The notes under the pieces were generated by a model. That model was not told the origin of the DNA and ran no database searches. It worked only from the letters and a program-made list of their open reading frames with translations. Position numbers and translations under genes: made by a program. This document shows, one piece after another, positions 5,015 to 8,388 of a DNA stretch of 64,000 bases (position 1 is the stretch's first letter; each line of letters opens with the position of its first letter). Origin of the DNA: Candidatus Vecturithrix granuli (GTDB lineage: Bacteria > Moduliflexota > Moduliflexia > Moduliflexales > Moduliflexaceae); NCBI GenBank assembly GCA_000739535.1, contig DF820464.1, positions 137,281 through 201,280 of the forward strand, given 5' to 3'.

Positions 5015-5136
5015 TTTGGGTAGTGGTGAAATAGTAAGTGATGCGTTCCCTGAGCGAAGTCGAAGGGAACAGTGAGCGGCTCGTTTCGACTTCGCTCAAC
5101 GAGCGGGCATCACTTACTATTTCACCACTACCCAAA
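5015..5136. mobile_element. MITE-like element with 30-bp perfect terminal inverted repeats
   Basis: The arms 5015-5044 and 5107-5136 are perfect inverted repeats of 30 bp. Their outer part contains the motif GGTAGTGGTGAAATAGTAAG. The 62-bp core holds two smaller palindromes built from CCCTTCGACTTCGCTCA-like words and has no coding capacity. Related ends occur at 61-88 and, more diverged, around 9620-10003. No transposase for this family lies in the window. The element separates livF from the NACHT gene and supplies no obvious promoter. Confidence 0.8.
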
Positions 5137-5215
5137 TTTTGCTGAAATACGCAAGGCTTCTTTCCAACTCATATTTTACAATGATACCATAGTCATAGAA
5201 GAAAAGGAGCACATT

Positions 5216-8200
5216 ATGAGCCGCTATCGGGAAGAACTTCAAGAGCAGCGCGAGCAACTCAAACACAAACTCAACACAATGCTTCCTGATTCCCCGCAAG
5301 AACAGGAATTTCAGACCCAATTACAGGAAATCGAGCAGAAGTTGCAACAACTCGCGGTCTTTCCGCCCCCGCCTGAGCCTGATCCGCTGCGCGACGCGTA
5401 CCTGCGCCGGGTGTTGAAAACGACCAGCCGCCTGGAATTGAGTGGGATCGACCGCAAAGCTACCGGCACTGATGCGAATTCCTGCTTGAATCTGGAAGCG
5501 GTCTATACCGCGCTGCTGACCCTGAGCAGCGAGCATAAGGAAACCCTGCTCGCCTCCTTGCCGCGAGAGGAAGGACAGGCGCGGCGTCTGTCGGCTTTGG
5601 AGATGATGAACCGGCAGAAGCGCCTGGTGTTATTAGGCGATCCCGGCAGCGGCAAGACGACCTTTGTCAAGTTTGTGACCCTATGTCTGGCTGGCGCATG
5701 GCTGGATGACCCGCAGGCCAATTTCTTGCGGTTAACCGCGCCTTTGCCGGATGAGGAAGGCAAGCCTACGGACGAACCGCAGCCCTGGGAAGCCGGACTC
5801 TTGCTGCCGGTGCAGGTGGTGCTGCGAGATTTTGCGGCCAAAGGTTTGCCTGCGCCGGGGCAGCCGGCCAAAGCGAAACACTTGTGGGATTATATTGTCA
5901 AAAATCTGGAAGAAAACATGCTCAGTGCGTTTATTCCTCAGTTGCAACACTATTTTCAGGAACAGGGCGGATTGCTGCTGCTGGACGGACTGGATGAAGT
6001 GCCGGAGGCCGACCGTCGGCGCGGACAGATCAAACAGATTGTGGAAGATTTTACGCTTCTGTTTCCTGACTGCCGCATCCTTGTCACCAGCCGCACGTAC
6101 GCCTATCAAAAACAGGACTGGAAATTGGACGGCTTTCACGAGACGATTCTGGCGCCATTTTCCAAAGGACAGATCCGCTGTTTTGTGGATCGCTGGTACC
6201 AGCATATTGCTGCTGTCCGCAGCATGGATCGTGACAATGCGCAGGGACGGGCTGAAAGGTTGAAACAGGCCATATCGCGGAACGATCGCTTGTATAGCCT
6301 TGCAGAACGTCCCTTATTGTTAACGTTGATGGCCAGTCTGCACGCCTGGCGCGGCGGCAGCCTGCCCGAAAAGCGTGGGGACCTATACGCTGAAGCGACC
6401 GATTTATTGTTAGATTGGTGGGAACAGGATAAAGTCGTACGCAATGCGGACGGTCAGATTGTCGTGAGGCAGACCAGTCTGTCAGAACTGTTAAAGGTCG
6501 GCAAAGAGCGTGTGCAACAGGTGCTCATGTTTCTGGCATTTGAAGCCCATCAGGGCCAGCCCGACCTGGTCGGCACGGCTGATGTGCCAGAGGAGCGGCT
6601 GGTAGGGCAGCTCATGGATATCTGCCGCAATGATAAGGTTAATCCTGTCCTGTTGGTCGAGTATCTCAGCGACCGCGCCGGTTTGCTTGTGCCGCGAGGG
6701 GTGAAAGTCTATAGTTTTCCGCACCGCACCTTTCAGGAATATCTGGCCGCCTGTCATCTGGCTGATGAGGAGAATTATCCGGACACAGTTGTGCGTCTGG
6801 CGAGGGAAGACCCGAATCGCTGGCGCGAAGTGGTCTTGTTAGTCGGCGGTATCGGCAAAACGGCCATGCGCTGGTCGTTGGTCAATGAACTCTGTCCGTA
6901 TCCTCCTGAAAATGGGAAGCGTTTGCCTGTGAATGCCTGGAGCGCACTGCTGGCCGGGCAGGTGCTGTATGAATCATTGAGTATCGAACGCCTGAGTTCC
7001 GCCAACCAATCCTGCGTGGAGCGGCTGCGTGACTGGCTCACGGCGATTCTGACCGAACAGACACCCTTCGACTCCGCGCCCTTCGACTCCGTTCCCTTCG
7101 ACTCCGCGCCCTTCGACTCCGCTCCCTTCGACTCCGCTCCCTTCGACTTCGCTCCCTTCGACTCCGTTCCCTTCGACTCCGCTCAGGGAACGGGAACGGG
7201 AAAACCCTTCCCGGCAACTGAACGCGCCTTAGCCGGAAATATTCTCAACAAAACGGGCGATTCACGCGCGGGCGTGGGCTGCCGCCCCCTGAGCGGAGTC
7301 GAAGGGCGCGGAGTCGAAGGGCGCGGAGTCGAAGGGCGCGGAGTCGAAGGGCGCGGAGTCGAAGGGAGCATTCGGTTGCCGGATATTGTCTGGTGTGAGG
7401 TGCCGGAGGGGACGTTTTTGATGGGCAGTGATCCCCAGCAAGACCCGCCGGAAAAAATTTTGGAAGAATTTTTGGAACTCTATGATGTGCCTGATGACCA
7501 AATACCTGCTTTAAAGAAGCTGATTTGGTCAGAGCAGCCTCAACATGAAGTCCTGCTTTCCTCTTATCACATAAGCCGGTACGTTGTTACCAATGCGCAG
7601 TATTACACCTTTGTGACCAATGGCGGTTACACCGAGCGTTGGAAAGAATGCTGGTCTCCGGAAGGCTGGATCTGGAAGGAACAAGAAAATATTCGTGGAC
7701 CAGAAAGTTATAGAGAACCATTTGGAACAGGGAATCATCCGGTAGTAGGGGTATCCTGGTATGAGGCGTCAGCATTTTGTCAATGGCTCACGCTTCATCT
7801 GCGTGCGAGCGGCGATTTGACAGGCACGCAATTCATTCGCTTACCCACTGAGGCGGAATGGGAAAGAGCGGCGCGCGGCGAAGAAGGTCAAATTTATCCC
7901 TGGGGCAATGAGTTTGATCCAAACCGGTTAAATTACTATAAAATCGGATTAGGGGCAACCAGTCCGGTTGGGTGTTTCCCGTGCGGCGTGAGTCCCTGTG
8001 GATGTGAAGACATGGCAGGCAATGTGTGGGAGTGGTGTCAAGACTGGTATAATGATGAGTACTATGCGAAGAGTCCCCTGAAAGATCCTGCGGGGCCTGC
8101 ATCGGGCTCGGGCCGCGTGTTACGGGGCGGCTCCTGGAACGACGACGCCGGGAATTGCCGGTCGGCGGTCCGCCTCAGGGGCGGCCCCGGCGGCCGCGAC

Positions 8201-8239
8201 GACTTCGTCGGGTTCCGCCTCTTGAGGACGCCTTCGTAA
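5216..8239 (+). CDS. NACHT-type STAND NTPase with C-terminal FGE/C-lectin-like domain ending in a DGR-type variable region
   Basis: A protein of 1007 aa with these parts in order. Residues 1-40 are a charged coiled coil (EELQEQREQL). The NACHT NTPase has Walker A 'LLGDPGSGKTTF' near 139-150, Walker B 'LLLLDGLDEVPEADRR' near 251-266, sensor 'LVTSRTYAY', and the helical segments 'SLAERPLLLTLMASL' and 'FPHRTFQEYLAACHL' near 500. A linker at 616-717 is made of repeat-encoded pentads (PFDSA x8, then GVEGR x5). Residues 722-1007 form an FGE-sulfatase-like domain ('VPEGTFLMGSD', 'RLPTEAEWERAARG', 'GNVWEWCQDWY', 'GFRLLR'). The last 35 residues look like a DGR variable region. The start ATG 5216 has AAAAGGAG; the upstream in-frame extension lies in the MITE. 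Related STAND proteins act as regulated sensors or conflict proteins, and that role here is inferred. No partner gene is obvious. Confidence 0.85.
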   Translation: MSRYREELQEQREQLKHKLNTMLPDSPQEQEFQTQLQEIEQKLQQLAVFPPPPEPDPLRDAYLRRVLKTTSRLELSGIDRKATGTDANSCLNLEAVYTALLTLSSEHKETLLASLPREEGQARRLSALEMMNRQKRLVLLGDPGSGKTTFVKFVTLCLAGAWLDDPQANFLRLTAPLPDEEGKPTDEPQPWEAGLLLPVQVVLRDFAAKGLPAPGQPAKAKHLWDYIVKNLEENMLSAFIPQLQHYFQEQGGLLLLDGLDEVPEADRRRGQIKQIVEDFTLLFPDCRILVTSRTYAYQKQDWKLDGFHETILAPFSKGQIRCFVDRWYQHIAAVRSMDRDNAQGRAERLKQAISRNDRLYSLAERPLLLTLMASLHAWRGGSLPEKRGDLYAEATDLLLDWWEQDKVVRNADGQIVVRQTSLSELLKVGKERVQQVLMFLAFEAHQGQPDLVGTADVPEERLVGQLMDICRNDKVNPVLLVEYLSDRAGLLVPRGVKVYSFPHRTFQEYLAACHLADEENYPDTVVRLAREDPNRWREVVLLVGGIGKTAMRWSLVNELCPYPPENGKRLPVNAWSALLAGQVLYESLSIERLSSANQSCVERLRDWLTAILTEQTPFDSAPFDSVPFDSAPFDSAPFDSAPFDFAPFDSVPFDSAQGTGTGKPFPATERALAGNILNKTGDSRAGVGCRPLSGVEGRGVEGRGVEGRGVEGRGVEGSIRLPDIVWCEVPEGTFLMGSDPQQDPPEKILEEFLELYDVPDDQIPALKKLIWSEQPQHEVLLSSYHISRYVVTNAQYYTFVTNGGYTERWKECWSPEGWIWKEQENIRGPESYREPFGTGNHPVVGVSWYEASAFCQWLTLHLRASGDLTGTQFIRLPTEAEWERAARGEEGQIYPWGNEFDPNRLNYYKIGLGATSPVGCFPCGVSPCGCEDMAGNVWEWCQDWYNDEYYAKSPLKDPAGPASGSGRVLRGGSWNDDAGNCRSAVRLRGGPGGRDDFVGFRLLRTPS
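7064..7183 (+). repeat. In-frame tandem array, eight 15-nt units
   Basis: Eight consecutive units of CCCTTCGACTCCGCT (variants GCG, GTT and one TTC) run through the NACHT-FGE coding frame and encode (PFDSA/V)n. The unit is a multiple of three, so copy changes keep the frame. The same word occurs in intergenic repeats at 5041-5100 and 9680-9710. Confidence 0.95.
7292..7366 (+). repeat. In-frame tandem array, five inverted 15-nt units
   Basis: Five units of the reverse complement of the 7064-7183 repeat (CGCGGAGTCGAAGGG; the first begins AG) encode (GVEGR)n. With the upstream array, about 108 bases away, it can form a long mRNA or cruciform stem inside the gene. Confidence 0.95.
8125..8235 (+). 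other. Putative DGR variable region (VR) at the 3' end of the NACHT-FGE gene
   Basis: After 'VLRGGSW', nearly every codon ends in C (AAC GAC GAC GCC ... GTC CGC CTC ... GGC GGC CCC GGC GGC CGC GAC GAC TTC GTC). This is the pattern left when AAC-rich template codons are randomised at adenines. The G+C content jumps compared with the upstream domain. The position, the last codons of an FGE/C-lectin fold ending in GFRL, is the classic DGR target site. No template repeat or reverse transcriptase lies in the window, so it would be a remote target or a frozen relic. Confidence 0.65.
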
Positions 8240-8262
8240 TGCTTGGTACTTTTACCCTTTTA

Positions 8263-8289
8263 CCCTTTGCGAAGCAAAGGGGGTTTTTT
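8263..8289 (+). terminator. Hairpin terminator after the NACHT-FGE gene, part of a hairpin-rich tail
   Basis: An 8-bp stem CCCTTTGC/GCAAAGGG with loop GAA is followed by GG and six T residues. A second palindrome (8293-8306, CGCTACG/CGTAGCG) follows, then a TTCGC/GCGAA pair and an A/T run. Hairpins just after the variable region are also a common property of DGR targets. Confidence 0.65.
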
Positions 8290-8388
8290 CTTCGCTACGC
8301 GTAGCGTTAGCCGCGCAGCGCGAAAAATTTTTTTGGGCATTTTTCTCTGCCTTTTCGGAGTGCATCGAAAAGCCTTCAAGGGATTTAT

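What the first reader, a model, noticed from the sequence alone, without database searches (positions are those of the whole stretch)
8125..8235. DGR-type variable region at the C-terminus of a NACHT-FGE protein
Seen: the final 35 codons of an FGE/C-lectin-like domain show a run of NNC codons, raised G+C, and end in GFRL followed by hairpins. Established: DGRs mutate template adenines, so AAC codons become NNC in variable regions at exactly this place in FGE/CLec folds. STAND NTPases with DGR-diversified FGE domains are known from filamentous and multicellular bacteria. Inference: this is a remote DGR target whose binding surface is diversified for sensing.
Basis: partly seen in the sequence, partly recalled or inferred. 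Interest (0 to 1): 0.82.

Follow-up and report, generated by a model that had tools for sequence, protein, structure and literature searches.

The report
Hypermutated sensor tail, template not found
The end of an immune-sensor-like gene in this bacterium carries the footprint of a known gene-diversifying machine, shared by four sensor genes far apart in the genome, but the master copy that should feed them was not found in the sequence held.

Summary
Window 8123-8236 is a variable repeat (VR) of a diversity-generating retroelement (DGR) at the C-terminus of a NACHT-FGE protein. Three more copies of the same VR lie on other contigs. They end two TIR-NACHT-FGE proteins and one FGE protein beside iSTAND and AAA ATPase genes. 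Across the four, 25 columns vary. None is a third codon position (0 of 33), no invariant column is an adenine (0 of 74), and 21 of 25 fall on adenines of an independent template repeat in the same genome. Upstream, third positions differ at 34-66%, so ordinary divergence does not explain it. A GAA/GCA-loop hairpin sits 23 bases after the stop codon and occurs four times in 8.4 Mb, only beside these VRs. The predicted cognate template was not found. The one template beside a DGR reverse transcriptase mismatches the VRs at 20-22 of 72 non-adenine positions, so it is not theirs. Most likely the four are remote targets of a cassette in unassembled sequence; a recently lost cassette is the main rival. 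The kind is known (Dore 2024; Kaur 2020); this is a new multi-target member.

The parts
5216..8239 (+). NACHT-FGE protein gene, the DGR target (ORF open from GTG 5072; likelier start ATG 5216)
5624..6202 (+). NACHT domain
   Evidence: Pfam PF05729, 8.2e-11, aa 185-377
7064..7184 (+). in-frame tandem array of CCCTTCGACTCCGCT (8.1 copies) in the linker between NACHT and FGE
7293..7366 (+). in-frame tandem array of GCGGAGTCGAAGGGC (4.9 copies), the reverse complement of the first array
7517..8227 (+). FGE-sulfatase (C-type-lectin-type) domain
   Evidence: Pfam PF03781, 5.9e-59, aa 816-1052; aligns to TvpA 2y3c through the VR
8123..8236 (+). DGR variable repeat: block homogenised among four loci
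   Evidence: 0 third-position changes in 33 codons, all changed codons non-synonymous
8138..8207 (+). variable core: 25 varying columns in 16 codons
8208..8236 (+). invariant 3' end of the VR, place of an IMH-like element (IMH role inferred)
   Evidence: 0 of 29 columns vary
8250..8284 (+). conserved block after a diverged spacer: repeated TTTTACCC, then hairpin 8263-8281 CCCTTTGC-GAA-GCAAAGGG
   Evidence: 2 of 35 columns vary; four copies in the genome at up to 2 mismatches, all beside the VRs

Best explanation
8123-8236 is a DGR variable repeat. An error-prone reverse transcriptase copies a template-repeat RNA and misincorporates at its adenines; the cDNA then replaces the 3' end of the gene. 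This rewrites 16 codons of the tail of the FGE domain and leaves the other bases fixed. One template lineage served at least four targets on four contigs (window, L018, L019, L020), so it must have worked in trans on at least three of them. The conserved hairpin after each stop codon is the likely homing mark. The targets would be sensors of conflict systems: the FGE tail recognises an invader, and NACHT or TIR-NACHT (for L019, the neighbouring iSTAND and AAA ATPase) signals. Shown: the VR pattern, the four copies, hairpin conservation, the domains, and a DGR reverse transcriptase with a different template in the genome. Inferred: a cognate cassette in sequence not held (about 0.7), trans action, hairpin role, sensing, present activity. 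The confidence given is for the VR identity together with multi-target diversification from one template, past or present.
For: 25 variable columns, 0 of 33 at third codon positions, 0 A among 74 invariant columns. Third positions differ at 34-66% just upstream in the same genes. 21 of 25 variable columns are A in the genome's own TR2, and 21-24 of 25 in nine templates from other genomes. A DGR reverse transcriptase is present; 5 of 5 nearest named relatives carry adenine-biased template/variable pairs. The hairpin occurs only beside the four VRs. The tail aligns without gaps to the TvpA tail from GPASGSGRVLRGGSW to GFRL. NACHT, TIR and FGE domains.
Against: No cognate template found in the held genome. 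One variable column (8162, TTGT) never shows A, and L044's template has T there, so not every change need be adenine-directed. No similar hairpin (stem of 7 bp or more) after 6 of 6 VRs of the five RT relatives. No read-level or strain variation was available.
Confidence: 0.88

Rival explanations
1. A fossil: the VRs were made by a DGR whose template and reverse transcriptase have since been lost, and the four sensors are frozen variants.
For: No cognate template in a 93.8% complete assembly. The C14 reverse-transcriptase locus has lost similarity to C19 just before the place of a template. Degraded DGR loci are on record in Thiohalocapsa (PMC10907252, Results read).
Against: 0 third-position differences across four VRs means the loss would have to be recent. 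The assembly is incomplete and N runs lie beside several of these loci.
Confidence: 0.25
2. The C19 template (TR2) is the donor for the window VR.
For: It lies beside a DGR reverse transcriptase, has the same length and ends alike, 76% identical to the inferred template.
Against: 20-22 mismatches at 72 non-adenine positions; in Thiohalocapsa trans pairs match at all non-adenine sites (PMC10907252). The C19 enzyme itself could still act with another template RNA; that is not excluded.
Confidence: 0.02
3. Ordinary paralogues: gene conversion plus positive selection on a binding surface, without a DGR.
For: The block is homogenised, which gene conversion could do.
Against: Conversion would carry silent changes along, and selection would not spare every third position and every non-adenine column. 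Variable columns coincide with adenines of templates from unrelated genomes.
Confidence: 0.02
4. The hairpin at 8263-8281 is only a transcription terminator that travelled with the genes.
For: It scores as terminator-like with a T run, although the region has fewer such sites than its shuffles (2 against a mean of 4.6). None of 6 VRs of the five RT relatives has a stem of 7 bp or more.
Against: The exact sequence is kept at four loci across a diverged spacer and found nowhere else in the genome. The loop is GAA three times and GCA once. DGR hairpins with GRNA loops (PMC3240598, passages) and GRA loops (PMC4372165, passages) are on record; GNA and GNNA loops give very stable DNA mini-hairpins (PMC4686876, passages).
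Confidence: 0.35

Closest known systems
[quoted passage not shown] 2024, PMC10907252; Results section read)
   Same: NACHT or nSTAND proteins with a C-terminal CLec/FGE VR, some with TIR; MoxR-linked targets; several targets for one template class; remote targets best explained by trans action; degraded loci.
   Different: Here four dispersed targets of one VR lineage and no cognate template or reverse transcriptase found; one of the four sits beside iSTAND and AAA genes rather than a vWA target.
Remote variable proteins of cyanobacterial DGRs (PMC7517822, passages)
   Same: CLec targets away from the DGR, VRs at 3' ends, mobile-element-linked dispersal.
   Different: There remote targets were assigned to a template in the same genome by identity over 50%; here by shared adenine-specific variation among targets, with no cognate template found.
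MoxR-vWA ternary conflict systems with DGR (Kaur et al. 2020, PMC7159879, passages)
   Same: NTPase-linked FGE (FGS) hypervariable effectors or sensors.
   Different: No vWA domain was matched in the L019 target; its AAA neighbour matches its models only below their cut-offs.
DGR target hairpins: BPP-1 type (PMC3240598, passages) and nanoarchaeal type (PMC4372165, passages)
   Same: Inverted repeat after the VR, 7-10 bp stem, short loop beginning with G and ending with A.
   Different: 8 bp stem with 5 G-C pairs, 3-nt GAA or GCA loop; outside the target gene, 23 nt after the stop codon (nanoarchaeal ones lie within it).
TvpA, Treponema denticola DGR variable protein (PDB 2y3c)
   Same: Gapless alignment of the tail from GPASGSGRVLRGGSW to GFRL, 1.2e-18 for the last 136 residues.
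   Different: TvpA as solved is a 294-residue chain; here the domain ends a NACHT protein.

Membership tests
Diversity-generating retroelement target (VR) | differences between copies confined to template-adenine positions | tested here: met
   0 A in 74 invariant columns; 21 of 25 variable columns are A in TR2; 21-24 of 25 in nine other templates
Diversity-generating retroelement target (VR) | cognate template repeat matching at non-adenine positions | tested here: not met
   not in the held sequence; inconclusive for the organism because the assembly is incomplete and has N runs
Diversity-generating retroelement target (VR) | DGR reverse transcriptase in the genome | tested here: met
   C19 with adjacent TR2; 5 of 5 named relatives with adenine-biased pairs
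Diversity-generating retroelement target (VR) | VR at the 3' end of a CLec/FGE-type gene | tested here: met
Diversity-generating retroelement target (VR) | hairpin downstream of the VR | tested here: inconclusive
   present and conserved at 4 of 4 loci but also terminator-like; absent from 6 of 6 VRs of relatives
Diversity-generating retroelement target (VR) | variation within the population | not testable with these tools
   no reads or strains held
STAND (NACHT) sensor with DGR-diversified FGE domain | NACHT plus C-terminal FGE carrying a VR | tested here: met
   window, L018, L020
STAND (NACHT) sensor with DGR-diversified FGE domain | anti-phage or cell-death function | not testable with these tools
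   PADLOC gives no family for the window protein
MoxR ternary conflict system (L019) | MoxR ATPase, vWA and VMAP components | tested here: inconclusive
   iSTAND 8e-29 over its cut-off; AAA neighbour only below cut-off; no vWA or VMAP match among the proteins scanned
Catalytic formylglycine-generating enzyme | pair of active-site cysteines after RGGS (recalled) | tested here: not met
   in the alignment to 6muj the window protein keeps one cysteine, at the second place

The most novel reading that the evidence does not exclude
One template acts wholly in trans as a shared diversifier for unlike immune modules: a block of about 185 bp (VR, stop codon, spacer, GNA-loop hairpin) is a portable landing pad fitted to NACHT, TIR-NACHT and iSTAND/AAA-linked sensors on four contigs, so that a single cassette re-draws the sensor set of the cell.
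Probability: 0.3. Interest if true: 0.65.

Novelty: new member of a known kind. Interest (0 to 1): 0.47.

Why it matters
It adds a four-target DGR from a sparsely sampled phylum (4 genomes held) to the bacteria that diversify NACHT-type sensors. It also shows that a VR family can be recognised without its template: adenine-free invariant columns and silent third positions across paralogues are enough. If one template feeds both STAND and iSTAND/AAA-linked sensors through a hairpin-marked landing pad, the choice of targets in trans becomes directly testable.

Tried and rejected
Window VR against six reverse-transcriptase loci: only L002 (C19) stood out (73 of 130; next best 54). It proved a different template.

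TR2 against the genome for its own targets: itself and three short weak hits. Its targets were not found in the held sequence.

Viral contigs with the 21-base 3' end: 0 matches. 144 genomes with the inferred template: 8 match, one of them our own; the other seven are listed under other families. They give analogous templates or VRs, not the cognate one.

G001, the same-family genome: an Avd-like ORF and a short reverse transcriptase beside a caspase-like FGE protein; no template/variable pair found.

The seven other own FGE loci (L077-L083): none among the best 45 matches to either mask.

AlphaFold model of the FGE domain from four sequences: mean pLDDT 39.4, discarded; no fold search was run.

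PADLOC: no family for the window protein. PHROGs and NCBIfam gave no DGR-specific model for these reverse transcriptases; the C16 one was not typed. From memory I guessed a KSB3-type host and searched the word Vecturithrix; it occurs in none of the 40 papers listed of 174.

Rows left out: ten templates were compared. The templates of L061 and L062 and L045 (28 A, template-like) were not included. Of the ten, four (L016, L058, L059, L060) lie beside a reverse transcriptase in my calls; six (L043, L044, L046, L047, L048, L051) are called templates from adenine richness alone, and two of these (L046, L051) come from one genome.

Full report
OBSERVATION. The ORF at 5072-8239 encodes a 1055-residue protein with NACHT (8.2e-11) and FGE-sulfatase (5.9e-59) domains. 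The 33 codons of 8123-8221 are rich in NNC (24 of 33 against 286 of 1017 in the rest) and in G+C (0.778 against 0.55).

FOUR COPIES. The held genome (8.38 Mb, 21 contigs, 93.8% complete, 10.75% contamination) has three other places 86-88% identical to 8100-8239, on C9, C13 and C18. Each is the C-terminus of an FGE protein. L018 and L020 are TIR-NACHT-FGE. L019 is an FGE protein with no other Pfam match, preceded by an iSTAND protein (8e-29) and an AAA ATPase that matches its models only below their cut-offs. Of the 14 FGE-family matches in the genome, the window's included, 4 carry this VR.

THE ADENINE TEST. In 8123-8221, 25 of 99 columns vary: 13 at first, 12 at second and 0 of 33 at third codon positions. 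The 74 invariant columns are 36 C, 30 G, 8 T and no A; 20 of the 25 variable columns show an A in at least one copy. The control is the FGE region just upstream in the same genes: third positions differ at 34-66% in all six pairs, while within the VR every changed codon is non-synonymous. An independent check uses TR2, a template beside a reverse transcriptase on C19: 21 of 25 variable columns are A there, against 6 of 74 invariant ones (p 1.7e-12). Nine templates from other genomes give 21-24 of 25 (which ones were left out is told under Tried and rejected). Columns are not fully independent events, so the p-values are guides only.

BOUNDARIES. Mean pairwise difference among the four loci by segment: upstream 8063-8102, 0.59; 8103-8122, 0.125; 8123-8137, 0; 8138-8207, 0.24; 8208-8236, 0; stop and spacer 8237-8249, 0.295; hairpin block 8250-8284, 0.03; 8285-8300, 0.49; 8301-8339, 0.68. 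Retrohoming would explain the flat VR, neutral drift the spacer, and selection or co-spread the hairpin. The hairpin CCCTTTGC-GAA-GCAAAGGG (GCA loop in L020) folds at -8.2 kcal/mol as DNA and occurs four times in the genome at up to two mismatches, all here. Its GAA loop fits the GRA loops of nanoarchaeal DGRs (PMC4372165, passages) and is one base shorter than the GRNA loops of phage DGRs (PMC3240598, passages). It also looks like a terminator, and none of 6 VRs in five relatives is followed by a stem of 7 bp or more. Its role is open.

TEMPLATE AND ENZYME. Of six RVT_1 matches, C19 has a template whose core starts 23 bp after the gene (L016 6918-7016; reverse transcriptase 5902-6894). Its five nearest named relatives (36-44% identity) all carry adenine-biased template/variable pairs (89-100% of mismatches at template A in the windows shown), each with the template soon after the reverse transcriptase. 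So C19 is a DGR. C14 is 91.6% identical over 1002 bp and the match ends before the template position. C3 is a group II maturase type. C16 was not typed. TR2 mismatches the four VRs at 20-22 of 72 non-adenine positions, so it is not their template. The inferred template finds the four VRs, TR2 and eight short chance-level hits. The 3' end with up to three mismatches finds only the four VRs. No adenine-biased pair joins any reverse-transcriptase flank held to any own locus held. Runs of N lie beside several of these loci; whether they are assembly gaps or withheld I cannot tell.

HOW IT MOST LIKELY WORKS. A cassette in sequence not held rewrites, or until recently rewrote, the four tails in trans. 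Up to about 3.5e14 tails per target are possible, with no stop codons, if all 25 columns are template adenines. The tail aligns with the tail of TvpA (2y3c) and keeps only one of the two cysteines of catalytic FGE (pair recalled), so it should bind rather than catalyse. Sensing by the tail and signalling by NACHT, TIR or the L019 neighbours follows Dore 2024 (PMC10907252) and Kaur 2020 (PMC7159879) and is not tested here.

KNOWN OR NEW. The kind is known: NACHT-FGE and MoxR-linked DGR targets, remote targets and degraded loci are all in print (PMC10907252, Results read; PMC7159879, passages; PMC7517822, passages). Roux 2021 notes that contig-based mining misses remote targets (PMC8144416, passages). 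New here are this member, one VR lineage across NACHT, TIR-NACHT and iSTAND/AAA settings with an exactly kept hairpin, and the missing template. I did not search the literature for this hairpin sequence in DGRs and make no claim about its being unreported.

Noticed in passing
window 7064-7184 and 7293-7366; also L018 and L020: Two in-frame 15-bp tandem arrays, reverse complements of each other, in the linker between NACHT and FGE of the window gene; the same units occur in L018 and L020 but not in L019, L016 or L017. They might mediate swapping of FGE domains.
   Followed up: partly
L016 7589-8511; L020 2569-3389: In L020 a nucleotidyltransferase and a HEPN gene stand just before the TIR-NACHT-FGE gene; two ORFs after TR2 in L016 look alike by eye, not scanned.
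   Followed up: partly
L087 1046-3998 (genome G001, same family): Caspase-like protein (by eye) ending in an FGE tail with a VR-like end, an Avd-like ORF and a reverse transcriptase ORF of only 190 aa, with no template/variable pair found.
   Followed up: partly
L017 6250-7374: Second DGR-type reverse transcriptase, 91.6% identical to C19 in DNA over 1002 bp; the match stops before the place of a template and the C-termini differ.
   Followed up: partly
L001 3070-3399: A repeated peptide SNPSRDYSAFLR downstream of the group II type reverse transcriptase looks like a translated repeat array, perhaps CRISPR.
   Followed up: no
window 8263-8281 and L020 6836-6854: The hairpin core GCGAAGC (GCGCAGC in L020) is of the GNA-loop class of very stable DNA mini-hairpins (PMC4686876, passages); DGR loops of GRNA type fall in the related GNNA class.
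   Followed up: partly
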